The notes under the pieces were generated by a model. It did not search any database, was not told the origin of the DNA, and saw only the letters and a program-made list of their open reading frames with translations. Positions 16,469 through 49,102 of a stretch of DNA of 64,000 nucleotides are shown here, piece by piece (position 1 is the stretch's first letter; every line of letters begins with the position of its first letter). The DNA is from Lepraria neglecta (Eukaryota; Ascomycota; Lecanoromycetes; Lecanorales; Stereocaulaceae). The stretch lies in the NCBI GenBank assembly GCA_033220425.1, contig CM065647.1, forward strand, positions 1,674,001 through 1,738,000, written 5' to 3'. The translations under genes and the position numbers were made by a program.

Positions 16469-17599
16469 TGATTCTGTACGAAACACTGAAGTCTAAGCTT
16501 TATTAATTCCTCCTCTGTATATTCTGTAAAACATTCAAGTTAAAAGGCTAAGGATTTCCTAAGCATCTGCCACGCCTGTCCAATGCTCTTTCTACAAACC
16601 CTCTTACCCGCTCAACGCCAACGTTCAGTTTCGAAAGCCGGCGAGCCAAAAGTGTGGCGGTTGAGCAACAACGTATCTATTCGTAGGAATAGTATAGGTT
16701 GGGGAGCGGTCCAAGGATTGAGGGACGGCAATACAGCAGAGGGCGTTGGTCGATAAAGCGGTAGGAGAGGAATTCGATGCTGTACTATGCGTCAGTTCCT
16801 CAGTTTTTTGGTACATAGAAAGCTGTCACAAATGTCCCGTAATGGTGACAAGGACTCAGATCAATGACCTTGGGATCCTCGAGTCAGCAGTCGCGAAATA
16901 GATTTGGGGGGCCAGCAGGCGTCCGGACATCCTAGGAGAATTGGCTTGGGAGATCTCTCCTAAGGCTTAGGGTAATTAGGGAGGAGCCAGTATTGGATTC
17001 AGCGGATCCACCCTGATGTTGGAACTCCTAGGATACTATACCCAGGAGATCTCACAAGGGACGTAGCAGTCTAGTAATAATCAAAAGAAGCTATACCGCC
17101 AAAATCTGGAGAGACACCCACGGCGTGGCTTCGGACCCGTATTATTTCAAAACGTTAGATCTGAAAGAATATATAGTGGCAGGCAGTGTTGATAGGAAAG
17201 CTCGCCACTGAAGAGAATCACTTTAAGGGAATAGTAGATACTCCCCAACCATCTAAATAAACTTTGATAAATAAGTGAAAGATATCGAATAGGAAATATA
17301 AGCGCTGTAATATTAAGAGCGAAGTATTTTTACCTTATAAGTTTGAAGTGAGAAAGAGATTTGCAATATTCTATAGATCGCAAATTCACGAAAAAACTTG
17401 CCGCTCGCCTTACTCGCTTTATTTCCCTAAGGAGCAAGCATCAATATAAAAGAGCGTCGTTTCTTCTCCATCTTGACTATCAGTGCGTCAACCGCAAACG
17501 CGACATGTCCCGAATTATCAAAACTTTTACTGCGGTCCCGAAAGAGATATTTCGTTTGGACAATAGGGGACCTCAGTCACCTTATAGGGACAAAAAGAA

Positions 17600-18060
17600 A
17601 TAACCAACAGTCCCCAACCCTTGTCTATATATACCGGTCTCCCTCATTTGCCTCCCCGCTGCGCCTGGCGTTTGGCCTCAAACTCCCGCACCAGTTCCTA
17701 TACATTTCCTAACTCGTATTCGAGCAGCCATATTCTCTTCTAGCATACCTTATATTTATTACCCTTTCCCCTTCGTCTCTTACCAACGATCCTTACGATC
17801 TCCTACTCCCCTTCATCCAATACTGAACCTCCTTAGTCTTAAGGTTGCTCCGGAAGAGGTAGAGTAACGGCAATAGCATAAGGAGGATAGACGGTCGCTG
17901 CTACTCCGCAATCACCTCGACGGATAGCCTGCTCAACTAAGTCACGGGATAGTGCGACACTGGGAGAGACGGGGCGATCAGAGGGGGAGGTGGAAGGTTC
18001 GGTGGTAGGTTCGGTGGTAGGAGGAGAACTCAAGCAACCGTGTGTCGTTGGCTATTCCCT
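17600..18060 (-). mobile_element. Relic with chromodomain, probably from a Ty3/Gypsy chromovirus-type LTR element
   Basis: On the minus strand the translation shows the hallmarks of a chromodomain like those at the C-terminus of fungal Ty3/Gypsy integrases: an acidic lead-in, EIVRIVGKRRRGKG, a KYKV strand and ELVREFEAKRQAQ. It is clearly broken, with a few interruptions over this short span. No terminal repeats or other enzymatic domains could be recognised nearby, so only a fragment survives and its age is probably considerable. A host chromodomain pseudogene is the alternative. Confidence 0.42.
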
Positions 18061-19150
18061 CGGGTGGGAGCTTTGGAGGTGTACGGTACCAACCTCAGAC
18101 TCTACGCTCGTGGCCCTGGTAGAAACCCCAGTTTCGCCAGTCGTTTCGTCGTTATCCTCCACCACGAGAGGGTCATCTAGAATATATTTCCGGGGTGCTG
18201 GTCACAAATGCACTGGGGAGCACACCTTAACTGTTACTAACTTCACTGGATCGACTTGAGCTTCTTGTTTTCTTGTGTTGCTGGAATTTTCGCGGAAAGG
18301 GAGGCCGTCTGAAGACAGGCTTAGGTTGCGATCGGATCCGTGCGAAGTCGAGGTTGTTTAAGTTATTATCGGTATCATCTGTCTTGTTGATCACGATCCC
18401 GTCTTTCTAGAGTCATTAAATGCACCCGCAGAGACTGGGACCTGGGCACTAACCTACACGGCGGGCCTTCTCCAACCTGTGTATACCTTCTCTACCCGCG
18501 TTCAAACCTGTACTGTCTGCTGTGCGCTTGGAGGAACCTCGAATGTGGATGGCGTCCATGGCTGTCACTGGTTCAGCGTCCGAAGGGCTCGTTGGGCTCC
18601 ATATCCATGGTGAGCCAGCCTGATCTGCCGCTGATCCTACGGCGTCTTCTCGGAGCGGAGACCGCTACGGAACCAGTGGCGGTTCAGGATTTGACGATGT
18701 AATGGGCGATCTTAGGGAGTATGGGATGATGTCGTCTGTACTGCAGCTCGCTCCTTTGTGCCCTTTTCCTTCCATCTCACGGGAGTGACGAGGCTCGATA
18801 CTTTTGAAGCTGATTTGTGTATCGTATGTCGGCGAGAGGAGGGTAATAGAGAGAGGAGGAGGAGAATCAGAGGTGGGATCTTCTGTCTTTTCGCGGAGGA
18901 TGGAATATCTAGATAGGTGCCATCCGTCAATACTAAGATCTGCTAGCTGGGGTTTCAAGGGTCGTACCCAGCTTCTGAGCCTACCACAGAAGTCCGTGGA
19001 GTGCTAAGGGAGTAGTGCCTCCCGCGTTGCTCAAAACTCGAGGCGTCACTTCTAGAGTGGACTTTGCTGTTTCTGTCGGTATTCGCACCCTTATTTCCAC
19101 CTAGTCTCAACCTAATCTCAAGCCCGATTATTGTGACTCTTAGGTGCTGG

Positions 19151-23671: not shown

Positions 23672-26600
23672 TCATTTCTCGTCTGATTCCACGGCTCCGT
23701 ATTTGATCAAGAGCTCTATCATCTCCCCTTGACAAGTATTTTGGGCTTGCTGAAGTGCAGAACTAGGGCACGGAGGCTCGTGTCTAGACGTCAGGGATTG
23801 TGTGGCATTCGCATTTGCCCCTAGCTCAAGCAAGAGTCTCACTGTGGACATTTCCTTGTTGGAGACTGCCCTCCAGAGCACTCTGCCGCCCATCGCGTCG
23901 ATATCAGCCCCCGAATCCACTAATGCGCGTACTAAGTCGTCCAGACCCTGTTGAGCCGTCAAACACAATGTCGGCATGTCGTACTGTTCGTAGCAGCCCG
24001 ATTTGTCCCATCGCTTGGTCGGAATCGTTAGATTTGCATTCGCCCCATACTTCAAGAGCATTTCCACAAGGATGGATCTTCATTTTTGAAACCTATGTTC
24101 ACGATGATTCCCCAACTTGCAGCGTCCTAGTGCCATCCCAAAGACATTCCACCCCCGGAACATCGTGTGAGGCCTTGCTCCGTGTTCCAACAAAAGCTTT
24201 GCACAGGTTTCCTTGTCCTGCTCAACAGCCTTCCACAATGCAATCCCAAGGTACGAGGTCTCTCGATCACCTTTGGGCCATTCAGTTAACACCCGCGCCA
24301 GTCCAGCATCATTGCCAGCCTGTACTGCTTTCTCCAAGCGTGTTGCGCCCTTCCAGAATTCTTTGGAGGAGTGATCGAAGTCCTTGTGCTGTGAAAGCAA
24401 CAACTTTGCAGCCTCTTCATGGCCATCAAAAGCGGCTAATTGGAGTGGTGTTGCACCATCTTCATTTCTGACCTCAAGATTTTCCCCATGCTCCACGAGC
24501 AGCTCCAGCATCGGTATAGAATTTCCGGCTGCTGACGTATGTAGCGGATAATTGAAATCTGGCAGGTCAATGTTCCAAGCCGTGAAATCGCAAATCGCTC
24601 TTCGATCTTCCAACAGACGGAAAAGGTCTCGCTTCGAATGTCGTTTGAATCTCAAGCGGTCTATCTCTGTTAATTTTTTCCATCATCTGCTCGTCTAACC
24701 TGGCTCCTACCTCCAAGAGCACCTCGGCTTCTCTGATATTTCTATACATGCAAGCTAAATGTAGTGCTCTATTGTAACGAAAAACGGCGTAAGGGTTTAA
24801 ACCCATTGGGTCGCCATCGAGACGGGTCTGTAGGATATCTTCAAACCCCCAAATGCTTGCGCAAAAGAGATAGTCTGCTGGGTCGCTTATCATGGAGAAT
24901 ATTTTGCGGTGATATCCATCCCACGGTAAATAGGAAAAATAAGTGTGATGCAGGGCACCCCTGTAGACTTTACTCTGCTGAATGAGACCGTTCCACTATA
25001 TAAACGAGCGCGAACACTTCCGATGTTCGTCTATCATGAAGTCTCGATGTACGTCTTTGAGAGGAGAGAATAGCCGATATTCTCCGCTCTCAAACAGGTG
25101 ACAGGACCAATACAAACACGTGTAAGCGTGGAAGTCATTGAGGAATGCATGGCCGGCTGAAAGAATCTCTTCCTCATCTGCGATACCTCCTTCACTCTCG
25201 GAAATCGCAATGTCCCTGTGAGCCATATCATTCCACAAAGCTTTGAACTCGTCTGTCGCTCACAGTACAGATGGTACGGGTGTGAGACTTCATAAACAGG
25301 TAGTCAATGCAGGATCGAGCCGCAGACGCATGGCCCCTCCCGGATTCGTAGCCTCCTTTGGTTTCGAGAAACTCCCGAACAGACAGATGAGCGAAGCGAA
25401 AAACACCTAACCCAGTGTCAAGCACAATAAAGTTGGCGCATAGATCGAGTAGGTCGTCTTTGCATAACTCGGTCCTCTCCATCCTGTGCGACGACACAGC
25501 ACGGATGAAGTTTCTACTGCTCAGGGGTACTTGGAGGCACATCAGCAAGTGTAATGCGCCTTCAGCAACAGATTTCTCTTCGTCTTCGTACGCATCAAAT
25601 CTTTGTACATAAGCGTCATTGTAGAGCTCGCGCAAGTCTGTCGGCGGTTTCCCCAATCGTTTGCGTACCGCAGTCTCCAGTCGCAAACCTTGGAGACATT
25701 GCAGTTGTAAGCTAACCCATCGAAACCTAAAATTAAACTATCTATCAGTTCAAATATGTAGGAATACGTATCGGACACGCTATCAAACCATTATACGTCC
25801 ACTATCGGGTTCTTATGAAAGACCAGTTTACGGAGAGTGGTTGATCTAGTAACGAAAGTTTTGCACTGACATGCCATGAGCTTGAGTTCGAAGTCTCTGT
25901 TTTATGTCATCACGTAGACCTGTACATACTTTACCGTAGAGCAGCCTTTTGGGTTTCATCAAATTGTCCACCTCATTGTTCACGAAATGGTTGATGTCTT
26001 CTGAATTATTACTGACGTCGATATCGAGATTAATGTACCCTTCTAGAAAAAGACTGATATCTCTGTCGTCTCGACCAGCTACGAAGATCTTAGTCAAGCT
26101 TCTCGAAGTTGTTCTTTACCCGAGCTTCGTAAGCCTCTAGTACTGGGTCTAAGACTGCCTCGCCAGGTTGAAGGCAAGCCATCTGCTTGGCGATGCTGCG
26201 GAGCAATCCTTCGGGTTCGCCTCGTTCGGGTTCTGCGGGACTTCGTGTGCAGTAGGAATAGACAGGATTGGGATTTTTGCCGTCTTGAAACTCTCCCAAA
26301 AGCTTTTCGATCAGGATTGACCTGTGCGCAGTTAGCATTGATACGTTGCATTGCAGGCATCTAGACGTTATAGAGACAGACACTAGCTTGCTTTTCCCGA
26401 AGCCTGGAGGGCCATGAAGCCACATGATAGGTGAGCATTCCAATAGGGGTTCATCGTTAAGAAACCATTCACCAGTCCCTGAGAGAATGTCTTTCTGGGC
26501 CTGAGTATGATGCATTATATACGGAGTTGGGGATAGCCAATTGAGAATTATTGCTCGTTTCCATTGTCGAGACTGTCTTGAATACTCTTCAACTGGGTTT

Positions 26601-27613
26601 CTATTCGATTGATTGGTTGCCCAAGGTCTTGGAGTAAGCTCGCAAGGCGCTGATAGTCGCTGGCCTCTTTCATTGACAACGCTTCCAGACCTCCTTCTAG
26701 ATTCTTGAGGTAATGCGTATTCACAATATCTGTATATCTCTTGACCTCCTGTTCCTGCATGCTGATGCGGTCGAGACGTTCTTGGAACTTGTTGTTGACA
26801 TCAGTGATACTTTCAAGAGCTCTAATTATAAAACGGTCAGTAAGACTGAACCATTTACACCATTTCGTGCAGTATACAACTATTGCGCAACCGCAAAACA
26901 GAATCACAATCATCAAAGGTGAGAACTTGTCGCTATAGTACTTTGGCTTTGATTTGAGAGATTAAGACATACAACGCGAGGCTTGGACTCACTTTTACCA
27001 GACTTTGAGTAGAATCTTTTGGCTTTGGCAAGGAACACCAACACGTGGTCGTAGAGGTCTACAAGACAGTCTTTGAGCTGCGCCATGATTTCCCCAAATA
27101 GAGCTTCTCAACGATTCGATACCGCGTGATTACGTTCATCACCTTCTCGACACCATCAATGACAATCGAATGTCGCTGGAAATCCTGGATGGAAGCCTGA
27201 AAATCGTCAATGACGATTCATTGCCAGAATCGTTGGAGGCTTTGGCCTTCCCAATCCTCCCACAGCATAGAATCATGGTGCTTCGGCAATTGGCACTTTC
27301 AAGACATGCAGCGGACTGAAAGGGAACGAACCTTGAGAAGAAATCGAACAGCCGCCCATGAAAGTGCTGCATAGCCAGGATCATACGAAACAGCAACATC
27401 GCCGACCTCGACGAACTTCTGTATCCACACTGCGATTTTGCTGAATACATCACGCAGGATGACTTTATTTACAGTCCACTGCTTTCGTTGACACTCGTCC
27501 CTACTGTCTTTCACGTTTGAGAGCAGTTATTCCAAGTCCACGGTAGCTCCGAAGTCGAGGCTTTTCTTATCTTCGTCTCTCAGTCTTGCGGCAGCCAGAC
27601 TCCAGAGGTCCAT
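23672..27613 (-). pseudogene. Decayed NACHT-ankyrin NLR-like STAND protein
   Basis: A relic of a large fungal NOD-like receptor read right to left. The N-terminal domain begins at the ATG at 27613 (DLWSLAAARLRDEDKK) with the typical ILRDVFSKIAVWIQKFVEVG and YDPGYAALSWAAVRFLLKV. A coiled region (26548-26830) and a NACHT domain follow: NWLSPTPYIMHHTQ, the P-loop HGPPGFGKSKL, and KIFVAGRDDRDISLFLEG. Next comes the winged-helix region (FRFAHLSVREFLETKGGYE) and at least five ankyrin repeats (for example DGATPLQLAAFDGHEEAAKL). One 140-nt intron is intact (about 25733-25872; GM joined to FRWVSLQLQ). The segment with the Walker B acidic motif is absent and several frame breaks are present, so I call it non-functional. 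Confidence 0.82.
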
Positions 27614-28138: not shown

Positions 28139-28942
28139 ATGGCCGGCGGCCACCTAAAATACCGCCATCTCTCTCGCGACTCCGCCCATCGCCAATCCCT
28201 CCTCCGCAACCTCGTAACTAGCCTAATAACCCACGAATCTATCCGAACCACCTGGCCAAAAGCAAAAGAAGCGCAGCGGCTCGCCGAGAAACTCATAACG
28301 CTCGGGAAGAAAAACACCAATGCGAGTAGAAATCGGGCGGAGCAGATATTTTTTGTAGGTTCCCCGCCAGCACCCCTCCTCGCATCCTAGACTCCCAGGA
28401 GGGACAGAGAGATGGTAAACAGGAACGTATTGCTAATTGTTCTTACCGCCCCGCAGCAACCATGGGACCACCTCCCCAAACTCTTCGGCGAGCTTCGCCG
28501 CCGGTACATAGACCGCCCAGGCGGCTACACGCGCGTCCTCCGCACTGAACCCCTAAACCGGCACGACGACCAAGCACCCTCCGCAATCCTCGAACTCGTA
28601 GACGGACCCCGCGACATGCGTTTCGCCATGACGGCCAAAAGCATCGCCCACGAGCGCTCCTCGGGCGTTGGACTTAGGGATATTACAGCACGGAATGTGG
28701 CGAAGGTTACAAGATATAGGAAGAATGGGGCTAAGGAGTTGGAACGGTTGGTGAAGAGTATGGGGACGTGGAGGAGAGGGAATAGGGAGGGGTATGAGAT
28801 GAGGGAGACGGGAAAGGAGATGGAGGAGAGGAAGAGGGGTTGGGCGGAAAAGAGGGGGGAGGTTTGGGAGAGGAGGCATCCGCATGGGGAGAGGGATCCG
28901 AATTCGGGGAGGAGGAGGGGCGGGGAGGATGATGACGATTAG
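28139..28942 (+). CDS. Mitochondrial large-subunit ribosomal protein bL17m
   Basis: A 233-residue protein homologous to bacterial L17 (yeast Mrpl8). It has the canonical start [20 protein letters not shown] and the strand-helix core [21 protein letters not shown]. An intron at 28355..28456 joins RAEQIFF to [10 protein letters not shown], after which [20 protein letters not shown] and [14 protein letters not shown] complete the L17 fold. A charged C-terminal extension of about 90 residues, ending in an acidic run, is typical of fungal mitoribosomal forms. It acts in the mitochondrial matrix. The upstream frame is open for another 72 codons, but I choose the ATG that matches the family N-terminus. 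It separates two NLR-type loci. Confidence 0.9.
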
Positions 28943-30011: not shown

Positions 30012-32040
30012 TTATTTGAAATACTCAAGTGTGCGTATCGAGTGGAGGGTGTCGGGATGCTCCTCGCCCAGCGTCCTCTTCCATACTTCTACTACCCGCT
30101 CCGTCAGCTGTAGTGCTTTTTGTCTCTTACCCGCCTCGCTATATATAATGGCGAGATCGTGCATCGGGCCGAGGGTGTCGGGATGCTCCTCGCCCAGCGT
30201 CCTCTTCCTTGCTTCCACTACCCGCTCCGTCAGCTGTAGTGCTTTTTGTCTCTTACCCGCCTCGCTGTAACTGATGGCGAGACTGTGCATCGAGTGGAGG
30301 GTATCGGGATGCTCCTCGCCCAGCGTCCTCTTCCTTGCTTCCACTACCCGCTCCGTCAGCTGTAGTGCTTTTTGTCTCTCACCCGCCTCGCTATATATAA
30401 TGGCGAGATTATATATCGGGCCGAGGGTGTCGGGATGCTCCTCGCCCAGCGTCCTCTTATATATTTCCACTACCCGCTCCGTCAGCTGTAGTGCTTTTTG
30501 TCTCTCACCCGCCTCGCTGTAACTGATGGCGAGACTGTGTATCGAGTGGAGGGTGTCGGGATGCTCCTCGCCCAGCGTCCTCTTCCTTGCTTCTACTACC
30601 CGCTCCGTCAGCTGTAGTGCTTTTTGTCTCTCACCCGCCTCGCTGTACCTGATGGCGAGACTATGCATCGGGCCGAGGGTGTCGGGATGCTCCTCGCCCA
30701 GCGTCCTCTTATATATTTCCACTACCCGCTCCGTCAGCTGTAGTGCTTTTTGTCTCTTACCCGCCTCGCTGTAACTGATGGCGAGACTGTGCATCGAGCC
30801 GAGGGTGTCGGGATGCTCCTCGCCCAGCGTCCTCTTATATATTTCTACTACCCGCTCCGTCAGCTGTAGTGCTTTTTGTCTCTCACCCGCCTCGCTGTAA
30901 CTAATAGCGAGACTATACATCGAGTGGAGGGTGTCGGGATGCTCCTCGCCCAGCGTCCTCTTCCTTGCTTCTACTACCCGCTCCGTCAGCTGTAGTGCTT
31001 TTTGTCTCTTACCCGCCTCGCTGTATATGATGGCGAGACTGTGCATCGAGCGGAGGGTGTCGGGATGCTCCTCGCCCAGCGTCCTCTTATATATTTCCAC
31101 TACCCGCTCCGTCAGCTGTAGTGCTTTTTGTCTCTCACCCGCCTCGCTGTAACTGATGGCGAGACTGTGTATCGAGCCGAGGGTGTCGGGATGCTCCTCG
31201 CCCAGCGTCCTCTTCCTTGCTTCCACCACCCGCTCCGCTAGCTGTAGTGCTTTTTTTCTCTTACCCGCCTCGCTGTATCTATTAGCGAGATTATGTATCG
31301 AGCCGAGGGTGTCGGGATGCTCCTCGCCCAGCGTCCTCTTCCTTGCTTCCACTACCCGCTCCGTCAGCTGTAGTGCTTTTTGTCTCTTACCCGCCTCGCT
31401 GTAACTGATGGCGAGACTGTGCATCGAGTGGAGGGTATCGGGATGCTCCTCGCCCAGCGTCCTCTTCCTTGCTTCCACTACCCGCTCCGTCAGCTGTAGT
31501 GCTTTTTGTCTCTCACCCGCCTCGCTATATATAATGGCGAGATTATACATCGGGCCGAGGGTGTCGGGATGCTCCTCGCCCAGCGTCCTCTTATATATTT
31601 CCACTACCCGCTCCGTCAGCTGTAGTGCTTTTTGTCTCTCACCCGCCTCGCTGTAACTGATGGCGAGACTGTGTATCGAGCCGAGGGTGTCGGGATGCTC
31701 CTCGCCCAGCGTCCTCTTCCTTGCTTCTACTACCCGCTCCGTCAGCTGTAGTGCTTTTTGTCTCTCACCCGCCTCGCTGTATCTATTGGCGAGATTGTGC
31801 ATCGAGCGGAGCGTCTCGGGATGCTCCTCGCCCAGCGTCCTCTTCCATACTTCTACTACCCGCTCCATCAGCTGTAGTGCTTTTTGTCTCTCACCCGCCT
31901 CGCTGTACCTGATAGCGAGATTATGCATCGAGCGGAGCGTCTCGGGATACTCCTCGCCCAGCGTCCTCTTGCATATTTCCACTGCCCGCTCCGTCAGCTG
32001 TAGTGCTTTTTGTCTCTTACCCGCCTCGCTGTATACGAGC
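30012..32040 (-). repeat. Tandem array of about 16 nearly identical 126-bp TPR-coding units
   Basis: Each unit encodes KRTLGEEHPDTL, five variable positions, LA, two variable positions, YSEAG(E/K)RQKALQLTERVVE and a variable pair (AR, IY or VW). Fifteen full units, one truncated C-terminal unit and one more diverged first unit are visible. Outside the variable columns the units are almost identical even at synonymous sites (for example the CTCCTCGCCCAGCGTCCTCT core on the plus strand). The first two complete units (about 31790-31990) and the edges are the most diverged, as expected for unequal exchange in the middle of an array. Confidence 0.95.
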
Positions 32041-33576
32041 GCAAAGACGCTGGCCATCCTGTGACAATCGTCGCCGATATCTTCGAGATAGAATATCCCT
32101 TCCTTCCGAAAGCTTAGGCATATATCGATATGCGGTACCAGAGCTTGTCGGAACCGATAGTTCGCTGTTCGGAAAGTCTGTGGTATCGATAACGCTATTG
32201 CTGAGGTCGTCTGCGTCCAGACCGTCTCTTCGTCCGACGGACCTAGCCGATCTCGGACCCATGTATGCACAAGTGGATGCATGGATATCAGGTTCTCCTT
32301 ATCCCGATAAATCAGGGAGAAGGACAGCAGGACCGATACCGCGATCCGGAAAGTATTGGTATCCCACTCCTGACGGGATCGACGGAGGACTATCTTTGGC
32401 AGGTGGGAGAGCATCCAGTCCGATTGCCTGTCGTTTCGTAGAGTATAACATGCCTGGGAGAAGATCTCTTCCGAGATGCCTTCGTGATGGAGGAAACTAA
32501 ATATTTGTAACAGTTCAAGAGCGTCCTGTCCGGCCTCGCTCGACCTCTCCTCGATCATCTGCCGGGAAACTTCCCACGTCGTGTATACCGTGTATCGATA
32601 GTCGTCTCCGCCTTGGATCGCCTTCTGACTTAGGAGCTCTTTTCGACGCTGAGCGTAGAGCGTGCAATATTCCCCCATCCGACAGCCTTGCCAAATCACC
32701 GCTCCGGCTTGGGTGATTGCGAGCGCCAAGCATCCCAGGGTCAGAACCACCGGTCTCGCGGTCTCCCGCATGGACTGGCTCGAAAGATCACGGATTCCCG
32801 CCGTCTTCAGCATGAGCGTCACCGCTTCATCCACGCCCATTGCACCCAGTTCGTATGACCCGACGGTGGAATGAAACGTGCACTCCGGATTCCGGCTCAT
32901 TATCAGGATCACCCCTCGATTACCCACAGGAAAGTACGGAGAAAGATCCAGGTGAGGATCATCCGCGTTGTCCAAGACCAGGGCCCATGATTCCGAGACG
33001 TTCGACAGCCATCGCTGGACAACAGCCATCCGAGCCTCCAATCCGCAGATATTCGCTATCTGCAGATACCCTCGCTCCAAGCTCTCCGCACTGCTGGCAT
33101 CCACCCAGAACACTCCCCAGAACCTAATGCCTTGTTATAGTATGAACCCAAGCAAGAGAGTGAACACCTACTCGTCACGGTGATCTCCGACAAACTTGAG
33201 GCAGACCTGTGTCTTACCCGACCCGCCCAGCCCGTGAATCACATATCTCTTCTGCTGTCCTCGTATATTTGGCGTACTAGATGGAAGGCAGCGCGCTTGT
33301 AACTGTTCGCAGATCTCTTCTCGTCCTGTGAAAGTGGGACTGGCATTTCGGGGTACTTCGAAGTATTTGTTGCGGAACGGGGAAGGAGGGGAGGGAAGGG
33401 GATCTGTCGTCTCATTTCAGCCAGCTGCGTGTAGTGGTAGCATACCAGATAGCGAGCACGGTCCACTCACTGCCGTAGTAGTGTCTGTCCCCGATCTGTA
33501 CCTGACCCTGTCCATCCACCCGGAAGTCCTCCACTCGATGACCCAGGGATGGAACAGTGGATGCCGGAGTAGTCAT
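30012..33576 (-). CDS. NLR-type STAND protein: NB-ARC plus tetratricopeptide repeat array
   Basis: Three exons (33576..33471, 33403..33172, 33123..30012; introns 33404..33470 and 33124..33171) splice in frame to 1,149 residues, apparently intact. Residues 12-36 hold a short motif (GHRVEDFRVDGQGQVQIGD) in place of an effector domain. Then comes KYFEVPRNASPTFTGREE and the NB-ARC nucleotide-binding domain: P-loop GLGGSGKTQ at about 93-101, a RNBS-like FWGVFWVDASS, and the Walker B-like WALVLDNADD. After a winged-helix region, about 16 kinesin-light-chain-type TPR units of 42 residues run to the C-terminus. Such proteins are fungal regulated-cell-death or non-self receptors; the ligand and partner are unknown. 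It lies 2.4 kb from a decayed NACHT-ankyrin gene, with bL17m between. Confidence 0.9.
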
Positions 33577-42480: not shown

Positions 42481-42929
42481 CTACTCATTCTTTCAACTCT
42501 TCAAAGAATGCGGCTTGGCACTCACTGGCACGAGCTCTCCTTGCAGCCATGCTAATTTGCCACTTTTGTCCCCACGGACGTACCTTATTGGTCTCTTTTA
42601 TAGTGCTTGCATATGAAGTCGCGATTTGCATTCATGAGGCCTGAAAGAAATGCGACGCGTCCGGACCCTTTACGGCGGTGGGAACGCTTCTATCCGAGGG
42701 TCCATTTTCTCTCTCTTTGTCCAATTCATTGTTAGCATTGCTGTAATCTGTCGATCCCCAAGATGGCCTGACACTTTTCCGCTGCCGATTCTCTCATCCC
42801 CTCAGCTTGATGCTGTCAGGTTTCGCGCTTCTACGCTTGGCGATTTAGGACTCCCCTGAGAACCTCAGCTCCTGGCGCAGGCGTCCGTGAGCTTACCGTA
42901 GACACTGGCAATCGCAACGTACACGAAAA
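42481..42929. promoter_or_regulatory. Upstream region of the Axl2 homologue
   Basis: About 450 bp; no supported gene. It probably holds the promoter and 5' leader of the large membrane protein that follows. The short frame at 42650-42859 has no motif. Confidence 0.35.
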
Positions 42930-45900
42930 ATGTTCCTGCTCATTCTGCTTCTGGAGTTATCGAACTTGATACAAGCAACTCCCAGCGTCAATCTCCTCAT
43001 CAATGCGCAAGTACCGCCAGTCGCTCGGGTGAACCAAGCCTTCTACTTCGTCTTTACGCCATCGACCTTTTCAGACACAAGCCCTGTGAGCTATACACTC
43101 GAGAATACGACAGACTGGCTACAACTGGAGAGCTCTAGCGGATCCTTCTACGGAACGCCAGGACCGCAGGATGTTGGATCTTCGGTTGTGATCTTGGTTG
43201 CGGCCGACTCCACCGGTTCGGTTTCTATGCCAGTCACTTTCATGGTGTCAGCGAATCAAGGTCCTGAACTTGGTCTGCCTGTCGTGTCCCAGCTTCCCGC
43301 CTACGGCGCCTTCTCTAGCCCAAATAGTCTTCTGCTAACGCCTGGGAGCGCGCTTTCGCTTTCACTTTCTCCAAACACTTTTACAAACACCAACAACAAT
43401 ACCTCCTACTATGCCAAAAGTGCAGATAATACACCTTTACCTTCCTGGGTCATCTTCAACCCTAGCAACCTTTCATTCTCTGGAAAAGTTCCGCAAGCGA
43501 CTTCTCCAACCGCGATACCTCAGACGATTGGGATACAGCTTACGGCTTCGGATGTGATGGGTTTTGCAGGTGCAATTGCATCTTTCCAGCTAGTCATCCA
43601 AAGCCATCTCTTTGCTTTTAGAAGCACCCTGCAGACCATCAACTTCACCCCAGGCTTAGCGGTGAATTATAATGGTCTTTTGAGTGATCTCACTTTGGAA
43701 GGCCAGCCAGTGGTTACGTCCGACCTTGACCAAGCTTCCACAGATGCCCCCAACTGGCTATCCCTAGACCAGAATAGCCTTGTACTATCTGGCACGCCTC
43801 CCGCAAATGCATCTCAACAGAATTTCACGGTCAGTGCGACTGATCGCTACGGAGACTCTGCTAGCACCATCGTCCTCATCCAGGCTGCTGTCAATTCCTC
43901 ACTCAATATACTAATGCCGTTCCCTTCTTTGACTGCCACGGCTGGATCCAATTTTCTTTACAACCTTAATACCTCGCTTTCTTGTGACCCAGATAGTGCT
44001 GGAATCGACTTCACGGTATATCCTGGAATAGCAGCTGCGTGGTTGACCTACAACTCGACTACTATGAATCTTCAGGGCTATATTCCTAGTACCCTAAAGC
44101 CCCAACAAGTACAAGTCACAATTACAGCAACTCAAGGAAACCAGAGCCAGTCCGAAATCCTGAATATCACTCTAGGCCTTCCAATTAACCCGAAATCCCA
44201 CACCGCAAGCGGTAGTCCAAAGCCCACAGAGAGCTCAGGAGCTGAATCAGGCTTGGGAGCAAGCAAACATAAGGGGTGGATTGCGGCCGCAGTAATCGTC
44301 CCACTCGTTGTCGTGATCGCGGGACTACTGTTACTATGTTGCTGCTGCAGGAGAAACAGCAAGCTACGACTCAAATTCAAAGAGAACAAGGAAAAGAGGA
44401 AGGAAAAGAAGGGAAAGGAGAAGAAAAAGAAGATTTCCAAACCACAAGAAGAGAAGACCCAAGATGCAGCGGAAGGACAGCCTGAGACGGCTGAGCCTTT
44501 CGATATAGACCAGGAGGTGGCTGAAATACCGGCGCCAGATGTACATCAGGAGGGAGTTTCGGCATTTGACGTAAACAAAACACATCAGAAGCGAGCCTCC
44601 AGGTCGCCTAGGGCCCCGATGATCAAGCGCTTTTCTAGATTCCGCATCTCGAGAGGCACCACCGATGGCGCCGAACCGACGAGGCCGGATTCCTGGCAAA
44701 GATATGTTGGAGGACTGGAACCTATACGCTCGAAGCCAACAGTGATACCAGAGTATAGCCTCGATCCCGAAGAACAAATGCCATATAGAACAAAGGCAGT
44801 CCATACCCGCTTAAAACCAACCTTAGCTATGGTGCAGGGGTCATCGATCAGTGCCGAGACATCACCAACGAAGATATTATCCAAGCAGAGAAAACGGGGC
44901 TCGGGAATCTTTTCAAGCCAGAGAGTGAGCGGAGTTGGTCACGGACGGAATGCTTTGAGCCAAGGTATGAGCTACTGTCATTTTGGTAGCAAAGGTGTGG
45001 GCCATGGTGATGGGGCTCAATTGGGTGGACCTCCGGGCTATGGCATGGTCCATAAATCATGGCGCAACATGAGTGTGGCTAGCTGGACTACCACACAGAG
45101 CCCTCCTGATACCGGGGATCCGATCGTCTGGGCGGAAAGACTGGAGAGACGACCAACCCAGAAAACCATTGACTCGATCTTATCATCATTTCCGGACCCA
45201 TCAATTACATCATCAATGGAAACTTCTGTAAAACCTCAGACCATCCACGAAGCCGTGCTTGACGAACAAACCAGTGCGGGCCCCCGGTCTTTTAGGGTTC
45301 TTCCTCGAAGCCACCTCCCTTCGAAGCGAGATTCTCCTGCCACAAGCAGCAACAACCTTGATCCCTTACAAGCCTTCCTCAAGCGACGGCGTCAACAAGG
45401 AAGCTACGATAATCCATTCTGGGTTGCTGGACCCACGTCATCTCGTATATCCTCCTTGCAAAATTCGGGCCATCAAAGGCGTATTACCCACGAGGACAAC
45501 GCTTTGCCATCGACGCCGCGAAAACAAACAGTTCGACGATCCTACTCACAGTCCTCTTCTCTCGGATCCCAAATCAAAGTCGGTCCAACGAGAACGTCAT
45601 CATCACCCGCCCCCAAAAGAAGCCGAAATTACAACTTCACGCGAGTGAACAGCAAATCCAGCTTCAGCTCTAGCACCACTTCAAGGTTCGCAAGTGCCGC
45701 CAGCGAATTCGACTTTGAAAATGCCTTGCAAGAAGAAACGGACAACGAAGGAAACAGGAGGTGGTTTAAAGAGCATCCTAATCCTCTTCGCCAGAACAGC
45801 ACGGACGTTACAGATCAGGAGTTGATTGATAGTCTCAGAGCTGATGGCCAATTTAGTGCCGCGCAGAGACTTAGTGTTCTGAGAGCAAAAACGCAGGGGG

Positions 45901-46055
45901 TCAGTGCTGAGGCTTTCGAAGCAGATGCGAATGTTGAGATTCGGAGTCCTGTGGGTAAAAATTTGGGACAGAAGATGGGTTTGATACGTGGAGATCCGTC
46001 GAATACGAGTATGCGTGGGGACATACGGGATGCTGGGGAGAGTGCTTTCGTCTAA
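42930..46055 (+). CDS. AXL2: Axl2-like cadherin-domain plasma membrane protein
   Basis: A 1,041-residue type I membrane protein, intronless. A signal peptide (MFLLILLLELSNLIQATPSV) precedes repeated dystroglycan-type cadherin-like modules, visible as QAFYFVFTPSTF...WLQLESSSGSFYGTP and WLSLDQNSLVLSGTPPAN. N-glycosylation sequons are many. One transmembrane helix (GWIAAAVIVPLVVVIAGLLL) near residue 455 is followed by CCCCRR and a Lys/Glu-rich juxtamembrane run. A long disordered cytoplasmic tail is rich in Ser/Arg/Pro. The layout matches Axl2/Bud10, the axial-budding landmark; in filamentous fungi homologues affect septation or conidiation. The family is confident, the exact role inferred. Confidence 0.87.
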   Translation: MFLLILLLELSNLIQATPSVNLLINAQVPPVARVNQAFYFVFTPSTFSDTSPVSYTLENTTDWLQLESSSGSFYGTPGPQDVGSSVVILVAADSTGSVSMPVTFMVSANQGPELGLPVVSQLPAYGAFSSPNSLLLTPGSALSLSLSPNTFTNTNNNTSYYAKSADNTPLPSWVIFNPSNLSFSGKVPQATSPTAIPQTIGIQLTASDVMGFAGAIASFQLVIQSHLFAFRSTLQTINFTPGLAVNYNGLLSDLTLEGQPVVTSDLDQASTDAPNWLSLDQNSLVLSGTPPANASQQNFTVSATDRYGDSASTIVLIQAAVNSSLNILMPFPSLTATAGSNFLYNLNTSLSCDPDSAGIDFTVYPGIAAAWLTYNSTTMNLQGYIPSTLKPQQVQVTITATQGNQSQSEILNITLGLPINPKSHTASGSPKPTESSGAESGLGASKHKGWIAAAVIVPLVVVIAGLLLLCCCCRRNSKLRLKFKENKEKRKEKKGKEKKKKISKPQEEKTQDAAEGQPETAEPFDIDQEVAEIPAPDVHQEGVSAFDVNKTHQKRASRSPRAPMIKRFSRFRISRGTTDGAEPTRPDSWQRYVGGLEPIRSKPTVIPEYSLDPEEQMPYRTKAVHTRLKPTLAMVQGSSISAETSPTKILSKQRKRGSGIFSSQRVSGVGHGRNALSQGMSYCHFGSKGVGHGDGAQLGGPPGYGMVHKSWRNMSVASWTTTQSPPDTGDPIVWAERLERRPTQKTIDSILSSFPDPSITSSMETSVKPQTIHEAVLDEQTSAGPRSFRVLPRSHLPSKRDSPATSSNNLDPLQAFLKRRRQQGSYDNPFWVAGPTSSRISSLQNSGHQRRITHEDNALPSTPRKQTVRRSYSQSSSLGSQIKVGPTRTSSSPAPKRSRNYNFTRVNSKSSFSSSTTSRFASAASEFDFENALQEETDNEGNRRWFKEHPNPLRQNSTDVTDQELIDSLRADGQFSAAQRLSVLRAKTQGVSAEAFEADANVEIRSPVGKNLGQKMGLIRGDPSNTSMRGDIRDAGESAFV

Positions 46056-47909: not shown

Positions 47910-49102
47910 ATGGCAGGCTTGATGCCTCTGTTTCAACTCTTGCAAATCGGCGATCAGAGAACGGCAGAAGTGGAGCAGTTTCTTCAGCAGTTGCCCAAGG
48001 TCGAGGGCGAAAAGATGCCACCCGAATCCGAATGCATGATCTGTAATGCTCCCTACGACACGGTGAACCATGAAGGACAAACCGAACACGCAGTTCGCTT
48101 GGAATGCGACCAGTGTGTCTTCTCCGGCCCCATATCTCCTCTTTTGGACACTTTCGGGAGTCCCTAGACATTTTTCGGGACTCCCTTACTCCCAATGGAC
48201 TCCCAATCACATCTCAAAAGAGTGATTACTGACTGAAGAACTACAACAGTATCATGGGAAGCGGCGTAAGCATCCTTTCCGAGTTATTATTCACTTTTCC
48301 ACGCCCCAGTTTGAGCCTCCGAGCCCCTTGAGACATGTCTCCCAACTCAATACTCATCTTCAAAGAAATAATACTGACTCTGAAATGGTGTAGCGTATAT
48401 CAAAATGGCTTTTAGAACGGCGCAAGAACCCATGCCCGTATTGCAGGAGGGAGCTGTTCCCGTCTCGAGAGGTAGATTCTTACGCGGACGACGATGAAGA
48501 CGATGACGATGAAGACGATGACGATGAAGACGATGACGATGACGATGACGATGAAGACGATGACGATGAAGACGATGACGATGAAGACGATGACGATGAA
48601 GACGATGACGATGAAGACGATGACGATGAAGACGATGACGATAAGACGATGACGATGACGATGAACGCTACGCCCGTGAAGCGGACCATGCACGCGCTCT
48701 TAGGTCGCGGGATGCCAGAGAGCGACAACTATATCGGCGACTAGTCCGGGCGGGAGCACAGCTACCGCCTTTCGCTGTTGTGGAAGGAGTGCTATCGACT
48801 GTTTGCCTAGGCGCGATGTTCGCGGAACTTCGGCGAAAAGGTGCTTTTGATCTCCTAGCGTTGCGAGAGGCTAGGATAGAATTGATCGGGATAACGATAG
48901 TGACGTGGTGGATTTAAATCTTTTGGCAATGATTAGAGCGAGGGGATTCGTGTGGCGCTCGAGGATGTTGAGGGATGAGGTTATGGTTGAGAGTGATTGG
49001 TCGACTGGTGATAGGCGTTATCGGGAGAGTATCGATAGCCTGGCGTTTCAAGGGCAGCTTGCGAATTCCCCGGGGATGAAACGGGCGGATTCGTTTTGGT
49101 AG
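47910..49102 (+). pseudogene. RING-finger protein, copy B of an inverted pair (decayed)
   Basis: It starts MAGLMPLFQLLQIGDQ. Exon 1 (47910..48112) ends in LEC-D; a 137-nt intron, a 16-nt microexon (48250..48265, IMGSG) and a 128-nt intron join it to RISKWLLERRKNPCPYCRR. The RING ligand that is Cys in copy A (HECLKIW) is Arg here (SGRISKW). The acidic linker has become an Asp/Glu microsatellite, with a one-base loss near 48652 that shifts the frame. Homology to copy A continues out of frame (ERQLYRRLVRAGAQLPPF, ELRRKGAFDLLALREAR), then shifts again before VVDLNLLAMIRARGFVWRSR. With two frame breaks and a lost zinc ligand it is a pseudogene. Confidence 0.8.
48483..48664 (+). repeat. GAC-GAT-GAA trinucleotide-based microsatellite
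   Basis: About 180 bp of GACGATGACGATGAA units inside RING copy B, encoding an Asp/Glu run. A 15-bp period is regular for much of its length, with local expansions of GACGAT. The break in periodicity near 48650 (GATAAGACG) marks a single-base slip. Confidence 0.95.

What the first reader, a model, noticed from the sequence alone, without database searches (positions are those of the whole stretch)
30012..33576. NB-ARC-TPR receptor with a homogenised repeat array and variation confined to a few columns
About 16 TPR units of exactly 126 bp are almost identical in DNA, but protein differences cluster at the same columns: five positions after HPDTL, two after LA, E/K after AG, and the terminal pair AR/IY/VW. 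In a kinesin-light-chain-type TPR these would line the ligand-facing helices. Known fungal NLRs (for example the Podospora HET-D/E/R WD arrays) pair concerted evolution of repeats with diversifying recognition positions; this locus looks like a TPR version. The gene appears intact over three exons.
Basis: partly seen in the sequence, partly recalled or inferred. Interest (0 to 1): 0.82.

Follow-up and report, generated by a model that had tools for sequence, protein, structure and literature searches.

The report
Fungal immune receptor with self-similar sensor
A fungal gene for an immune-type receptor carries a sensor made of fifteen near-identical repeats that differ mostly where a ligand would touch; this kind of receptor is already known, but here the silent differences carry an unusually clean footprint like that of the fungal mutation process called RIP.

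Summary
A three-exon gene (33576..30012, minus strand, 1149 aa) encodes a short N-terminus, an NB-ARC-type core and a kinesin-light-chain-type TPR array: one divergent unit, 15 in-register units of 126 bp (mean identity: DNA 91%, protein 86%) and a stub. Ten columns carry the recurrent variation (6-10, 13, 14, 20, 34, 35). Added here: (1) shuffling is visible within one allele; (2) five of the ten columns coincide with peptide-contact columns of KLC1, while 8 and 34 look core-facing; (3) silent transitions sit almost only at CpA/TpG (8 of 10 sites against 1 of 34), as RIP would leave, a bias not seen in four bacterial arrays; (4) changes outside that context are 17 nonsynonymous to 1 synonymous; (5) exon 1 fits the HET-s-related amyloid pattern in most points, with no partner effector found in the part of the window scanned. 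One allele cannot show repeat-number variation or site-wise positive selection. New member of a known kind.

The parts
33471..33576 (-). exon 1 (35 codons plus one base): short N-terminus
   Evidence: ATG 33576, GT donor, reading frame
33484..33546 (-). candidate HET-s-related amyloid motif (r0-type), residues 11-31
   Evidence: fits hydrophobic 5/8/10/16/18, G19 and H3 of PMC4518210 (passages); shuffle frequency 0.0028, or 0.0004 with N/Q/H at 3; no Pfam match there
33172..33403 (-). exon 2: start of the nucleotide-binding domain with P-loop GLGGSGKT
32694..33242 (-). NB-ARC match (interrupted by intron 2, 33124-33171)
   Evidence: PF00931 16.3 bits, below the 23.5 cut-off; NF040586 FxSxx_TPR E 4e-47 over residues 57-446, below its equivalog cut-off
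30012..33123 (-). exon 3: rest of NB-ARC, DUF7779, TPR array, stop codon
32235..32531 (-). DUF7779 (PF25000) after NB-ARC; winged-helix nature is recalled, not tested
   Evidence: 36.6 bits, cut-off 27
31950..32075 (-). TPR unit 0, divergent edge unit
   Evidence: 68-75% DNA identity to units 1-15
30060..31949 (-). TPR units 1-15, 126 bp each, homogenised
   Evidence: (PF13374 E 1e-177, 16 stretches over exon 3)
31320..31823 (-). units 2-5, block repeated as units 11-14
   Evidence: 97.6% over four units, 99.2% over units 3-5/12-14
30186..30689 (-). units 11-14, like units 2-5
30015..30059 (-). 15-aa C-terminal stub (partial helix A)
   Evidence: helix 674-686 of the model

Best explanation
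A fungal NOD-like receptor of the NB-ARC/TPR class. The TPR superhelix binds a ligand (self marker, or a molecule from another fungus or a parasite) in its concave groove; NB-ARC then oligomerises, and the short N-terminus, probably an amyloid-templating motif, activates a cell-death effector encoded elsewhere. The array diversifies in two coupled ways: recombination between units copies, reorders and homogenises them, and C-to-T changes in CpA (RIP or something like it) plus rarer other changes supply variants, of which those at groove-facing columns are kept. Shown here: gene structure, array, shuffling of units, CpA bias, overlap with known contact columns. Inferred: ligand binding, oligomerisation, cell death, allorecognition or immunity, amyloid signalling, and that RIP itself is the mutator.
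For: Gene intact, 1149 aa; TPR_10 (16 stretches) and DUF7779 above cut-offs; similarity to bacterial NB-ARC/TPR-type model NF040586. Recombination: units 3 and 7, and 5 and 14, identical in DNA; 3-unit block 9 units away, order-shuffle p 0.0036; four gametes at 124 of 190 pairs of biallelic informative sites. Structure: model pLDDT 85.7, helix A columns 2-17, helix B 21-39; nearest solved sequences 4y6w/4y6c, then KLC1/KLC2; five of ten variable columns (6, 9, 10, 13, 14) are among the eight columns to which I could assign named KLC1-JIP1 contacts, hypergeometric p 0.012. RIP-like: transitions at 13 of 22 YpA sites vs 9 of 104 others, p 7e-7; silent only 8 of 10 vs 1 of 34, p 2e-6; TpA/ApT 1.18 in the array vs 0.53 in the NB-ARC part of the same exon; no such bias in 4 of 4 bacterial arrays counted. 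Other changes 17 N: 1 S vs 5 N: 8 S for RIP-type, p 0.001.
Against: One allele of an unnamed organism; no strain data. NB-ARC scores below Pfam's cut-off. pN/pS in the seven helix-A columns is under 1 (0.71-0.94 for ts/tv 1-4); the 17:1 excess against opportunity is only p 0.038 one-sided (0.058 two-sided) and its events are partly linked. Solvent versus buried columns of helix A: 7 of 10 vs 1 of 6, p 0.12. Columns 16, 17, 21, contacts in KLC1, are invariant here. Non-repeated flanks also reach TpA/ApT 0.97-0.99, so that index alone does not prove RIP. Exon 1 departs from the amyloid motif at position 15 and is richer in D/E than described for receptor-side motifs; no effector with a matching motif was found.
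Confidence: 0.8

Rival explanations
1. The column pattern mostly reflects mutation and relaxed constraint: RIP-type changes and cassette exchange scatter variants, and only groove-side positions tolerate them; no diversifying selection is needed.
For: Silent changes also cluster in codons 6-15 (pS 0.28 there against 0.10 over the unit); RIP-type changes are 5 N: 8 S, not different from the 50% expected; the changes at columns 8, 9, 20 and part of 34 are RIP-type.
Against: Columns 6, 7, 10, 13, 14, 35 vary by non-RIP nonsynonymous changes, transversions included; outside RIP context 17 N: 1 S; charged, probably exposed columns such as 17, 21, 29, 30, 36, 37 do not vary at all in units 1-15.
Confidence: 0.3
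2. The unit number or order is an assembly product: short reads collapse or chain such arrays, so the block copy may be artificial.
For: PMC12222747 (passages) reports that short-read assemblies omit or create repeats in Podospora WD40 arrays whose unit is also 126 bp.
Against: The reading frame is open over all units and only pairs 3/7 and 5/14 are identical. The sequencing method of the window is unknown to me.
Confidence: 0.15
3. A structural or housekeeping kinesin-light-chain-like TPR protein, not a recognition receptor.
For: The repeats are closest to 42PR/KLC sequences among solved structures.
Against: A STAND-type core precedes the repeats; [quoted passage not shown]
Confidence: 0.05

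Closest known systems
Fungal NB-ARC/TPR NLRs with high internal conservation (Dyrka et al. 2014: Pa_2_10340, Pa_3_9910 and Pa_5_8060 [PFD/NB-ARC/TPR], Pa_7_3550; P. chrysogenum gi255934897)
   Same: architecture, homogenised TPRs, variable sites on helices of the concave side, KLC2 as template, PFD-type N-terminus in two of them
   Different: unnamed species, one allele; here a quantified CpA footprint and a partition of changes; their strain polymorphism is shown, ours is not
Podospora HET-D/HET-E/HET-R (HNWD)
   Same: strategy: concerted evolution plus variation at interface codons; RIP proposed as mutator
   Different: HET-NACHT-WD40 with a beta-propeller sensor; no HET, NACHT or WD40 match here
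42PR repeats, PDB 4y6c/4y6w (named 'anserina putative kinesin light chain' and 'NaB(AB)3ACb - light chain TPR-like repeats')
   Same: same 42-residue repeat, E 2e-42
   Different: 229-residue constructs; that they are built from a Podospora protein and the term 42PR are read from the entry names or recalled
Bacterial NB-ARC/TPR-type proteins and 42-aa TPR arrays (NF040586; loci L001-L004)
   Same: same repeat, partly homogenised; the twelve most variable columns include 6, 9 or 10, 13 or 14, 16 and 17 in all four
   Different: less homogeneous (78-83% DNA identity), no CpA bias; columns 16, 17 (4 of 4) and 21 (3 of 4) vary there but not here

Membership tests
Fungal NLR, NB-ARC/TPR class | nucleotide-binding STAND domain | tested here: inconclusive
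   PF00931 16.3 bits < 23.5; DUF7779 above cut-off; NF040586 E 4e-47 but below its cut-off; P-loop, DNADD and MHP motifs read by eye, motif names recalled
Fungal NLR, NB-ARC/TPR class | C-terminal TPR repeats | tested here: met
   PF13374 16 stretches, E 1e-177
Fungal NLR, NB-ARC/TPR class | high internal conservation (over 85% over at least 100 aa in Dyrka 2014) | tested here: met
   mean pairwise protein identity 85.9% over units 1-15, my measure, not T-reks
Fungal NLR, NB-ARC/TPR class | repeat-number polymorphism between strains | not testable with these tools
   no own genome held; no other strain at hand
Fungal NLR, NB-ARC/TPR class | positive selection at groove-facing codons | tested here: inconclusive
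   ratio 1.47 on chosen columns, 0.82 in helix A, 17 N: 1 S outside RIP context
HNWD (HET-D/E/R) | HET, NACHT and WD40 domains | tested here: not met
   none among the Pfam matches shown: 24 of 24 for the first 593 residues, 25 of 31 for exon 3; works alike, not a member
HET-s-related amyloid motif (HRAM) | hydrophobic 5, 8, 10, 16, 18 and G19 | tested here: met
   residues 11-31, rule from passages of PMC4518210
HET-s-related amyloid motif (HRAM) | preference for R/K at 15; receptor-side motifs poor in D, E, K | tested here: not met
   Q at 15 and four D/E in 21 residues; described as tendencies, not rules
HET-s-related amyloid motif (HRAM) | effector with the same motif, commonly next door | tested here: not met
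   best other six-frame rule hit scores 14 against 111 for self, motifs split by introns would be missed; no HeLo, HeLo-like or PNP_UDP in 40 of 79 ORFs scanned; HRAM3-like pairs are seldom adjacent (PMC9815663, passages)
PP and PUASM amyloid motifs | NxGxQxGxN; FxGxGxQxxGxGxF | tested here: not met

The most novel reading that the evidence does not exclude
The sensor array is a self-mutating one: because its units are near-identical it attracts RIP in the sexual cycle, which supplies CpA changes, while recombination repairs, spreads and reorders them, so that a genome-defence process serves as the mutator of an immune receptor. This TPR array gives the cleanest silent-site footprint that I know of for that proposal.
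Probability: 0.45. Interest if true: 0.6.

Novelty: new member of a known kind. Interest (0 to 1): 0.42.

Why it matters
Whether RIP feeds the diversity of fungal recognition receptors was proposed in 2007 and left open for want of silent sites (8 of 9 CpA mutated; 78% at CpA against around 40% at other dinucleotides; PMC1805685 section 13). Here the contrast is 8 of 10 against 1 of 34. If it holds across alleles, a genome-defence process acts as a targeted mutator of an innate immune receptor, and crosses of laboratory strains with and without RIP could test it directly.

Tried and rejected
Rejected: HNWD membership (no HET, NACHT or WD40 among the matches shown); PP and PUASM motifs; a partner effector in what was scanned of the window (best other motif matches score 33 against 101 for self and 14 against 111); donor TPR units elsewhere in the window (blastn and tblastn gave only matches with E of 2.3 or worse). 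A two-unit period of the array is weak (lag 2 over lag 1, p 0.03), and links between columns 34-35 and the next unit are borderline (p 0.04 and 0.08): not claimed. Foldseek against the PDB put large TPR superhelices of other complexes first, KLC1 at rank 26, of no use for naming. Model coordinates were not found in the Python box, so burial was judged by helical wheel and by KLC1 contacts, not by solvent area. The second structure job was not used.

Dropped rows: all 12 bacterial loci were looked at; the six with the highest lag-42 identity in that list (L001-L006) went; two fell out for having fewer than four alike units; four were counted, with 9 of 9, 4 of 6, 4 of 7 and 5 of 8 units. They are few-unit, GC-rich (61-68%) arrays, so as a control for CpA bias they have little power each. 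In those four the fungal variable columns are not significantly more variable than the rest (p 0.067, 0.12, 0.24, 0.12); mean entropy at the KLC-contact columns is higher (1.51, 0.69, 1.08, 1.09), untested. Unit 0 and the stub were left out of the column, order and mutation counts. 79 of 121 ORFs of 110 aa or more were kept as non-shadow and 40 of these 79 scanned with Pfam apart from the gene itself. KLC1 contact N469 was left out, as I could not assign its column. Five N-terminal patterns were tried; two matched, the HET-s-related one and a RHIM-like tetrad VQIG at residues 26-29 (tetrad recalled; shuffle frequency 0.5%).

Full report
The gene. On the minus strand, exons 33576-33471, 33403-33172 and 33123-30012 join across GT-AG introns of 67 and 48 bp into an open frame of 1149 codons. 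Pfam gives TPR_10 (16 stretches, E 1e-177), DUF7779 (above cut-off) and NB-ARC (16.3 bits, below the cut-off of 23.5); NCBIfam's model NF040586 (FxSxx-COOH system tetratricopeptide repeat protein) matches residues 57-446 with E 4e-47, below its equivalog cut-off; that this is a bacterial NB-ARC/TPR family is recalled. Pfam finds no effector domain before the nucleotide-binding domain.

The array. Tandem Repeats Finder reports period 126, 15.8 copies, no indels. In register there is one divergent unit (68-75% DNA identity), 15 units at 86-100% (mean 91.4%; protein mean 85.9%) and a 15-aa stub that ends in a stop. Columns 6-10, 13, 14, 20, 34 and 35 carry the recurrent protein variation, column 3 differs in units 1 and 2, and columns 1, 22, 28 have only variants seen once. 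Seven of the ten columns lie in columns 6-14 (scan p 0.003). The 15 units are 13 distinct sequences, and these have 13 distinct combinations at the ten columns.

Recombination. Units 3 and 7, and units 5 and 14, are identical in DNA. Units 3-5 and 12-14 are 99.2% identical, units 2-5 and 11-14 97.6%; in 5000 shuffles of unit order a three-unit block this good occurs with p 0.0036, while neighbours are on average less alike than other pairs (p 0.03). All four combinations occur at 124 of 190 pairs of biallelic informative sites. This is what block copying, unequal crossing-over or gene conversion leaves, and it fits what was seen directly in Podospora WD arrays (Chevanne 2010, PMC2873952, abstract and section 10 read). 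The sequencing method is unknown to me, and short reads are known to garble such arrays (PMC12222747, passages).

Mutation. Silent variation has nearly one source. Of 22 unit positions where a pyrimidine precedes A on either strand, 13 show a C/T polymorphism; of 104 other pyrimidine positions, 9 do (p 7e-7). For silent transitions alone it is 8 of 10 against 1 of 34 (p 2e-6); for nonsynonymous ones 5 of 12 against 8 of 70 (p 0.02). The TpA/ApT index is 1.18 in the array, 0.53 in the NB-ARC part of the same exon and 0.71 in the window; array windows rank 3rd, 4th, 7th and 11th of 254 by RIP index. Against a simple reading, non-repeated flanks reach 0.97-0.99 and 23 of 254 windows pass the double threshold used (recalled). 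The stretch 17.5-18.5 kb has the highest RIP index of the window, so the species may well have RIP. Four bacterial arrays of the same repeat show no such bias (p 0.52-1.0), though each has few units and higher GC. Paoletti 2007 looked for exactly this in WD repeats and found too few sites to decide (PMC1805685, passages and section 13); Dyrka 2014 proposes it for repeat regions of fungal NLRs (section 20). In the listings of my searches I saw no paper that tests it in TPR arrays. Whether it is RIP or another CpA-specific process is inferred.

Selection. By counting, pN/pS (ts/tv 2) is 0.86 over the unit, 1.47 at the ten columns, 0.16 elsewhere, 0.82 in the seven helix-A columns alone, and columns 34-35 have no silent change. 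The ten columns were picked because they vary, so 1.47 is biased upward. Split by context the picture is clearer: RIP-type changes are 5 N: 8 S, compatible with the 50% expected by opportunity; all others are 17 N: 1 S against 75% expected N (p 0.038 one-sided, 0.058 two-sided), and the two classes differ (p 0.001). Several of the 17 are linked in one codon pair, so the true evidence is weaker than the count.

Place in the structure. AlphaFold2 on the array alone (single sequence, pLDDT 85.7, pTM 0.70; the five models range from 36 to 86 in mean pLDDT) gives helix A at columns 2-17 and helix B at 21-39. On a helical wheel columns 6, 7, 9, 10, 13, 14 lie 95-165 degrees from the centre of the face that I took as buried (5, 8, 11, 12, 15), column 8 lies in it. 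By alignment to KLC1, the residues that PMC6214655 names at the JIP1 peptide interface (passages: R266, N301, V305, K309, Y313, K340, N343, N344, L347, L348, N351, N386) fall in columns 16, 9, 13, 17, 21, 6, 9, 10, 13, 14, 17, 10; my assignment rests on the N-N-L-A motif and the spacing of residue numbers, and N469 was left out. Five of these eight columns are variable here (p 0.012); 16, 17 and 21 are fixed here but are among the twelve most variable in 4, 4 and 3 of the four bacterial arrays. Columns 7, 8, 20, 34, 35 are not among the named contacts. So the groove-side reading holds for most of helix A, and is open for 20 and 34-35.

N-terminus and signalling. Residues 11-31, in exon 1, fit the HET-s-related amyloid motif as described in PMC4518210 (passages): hydrophobic at 5, 8, 10, 16, 18, G at 19, H at 3 (as in HRAM3), polar 17, 20 and 21. 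Position 15 (Q, not R/K) and four acidic residues do not fit the described tendencies, and most HRAMs start nearer the N-terminus (positions 5-9; PMC9815663, passages). Shuffles of the first 45 residues reach the six-position rule in 0.28% (0.04% with N/Q/H at 3); it was one of five patterns tried. Elsewhere in six frames 13 other stretches satisfy the rule, the best scoring 14 against 111 for self, and there is no HeLo, HeLo-like or PNP_UDP domain in the 40 of 79 ORFs scanned. PMC9815663 reports that the HRAM3-like receptor motif and its PNP_UDP effector are co-localised in only a few cases. Two Podospora genes of Dyrka's Table 4 have the same PFD/NB-ARC/TPR architecture.

Verdict. A new member of a class described in 2014, in good order, with an unusually clear mutational footprint.

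Noticed in passing
23680-27400, minus strand: A second NLR-like gene (NPHP3_N with P-loop, ankyrin repeats) whose homologous pieces lie in different frames with stops between them; looks like a decayed gene, without a RIP signature (index -0.64). About 2.6 kb beyond the end of the receptor gene.
   Followed up: partly
17501-18500: Highest RIP index of the window (TpA/ApT up to 1.57); no Pfam match in the ORF 17891-18256; possibly a RIP-mutated relic.
   Followed up: partly
28391-28939, plus strand: Ribosomal protein L17 family match between the two NLR-like genes; probably the mitochondrial protein (inference).
   Followed up: no
42891-46052, plus strand: Large open frame with four He_PIG (putative Ig domain) stretches.
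   Followed up: no
48490-48658: Acidic 15-bp tandem array GACGATGAAGACGAT, 11.5 copies, inside the ORF 48394-48741.
   Followed up: no
L001-L004: Bacterial 42-aa TPR arrays that are also partly homogenised (DNA identity 78-83%), with higher mean entropy at KLC-contact columns (untested) and none of the CpA bias.
   Followed up: partly
30060-31949: Adjacent units are less alike than distant ones, with a hint of a two-unit alternation (IS-type and II-type helix A); p about 0.03, not claimed.
   Followed up: partly
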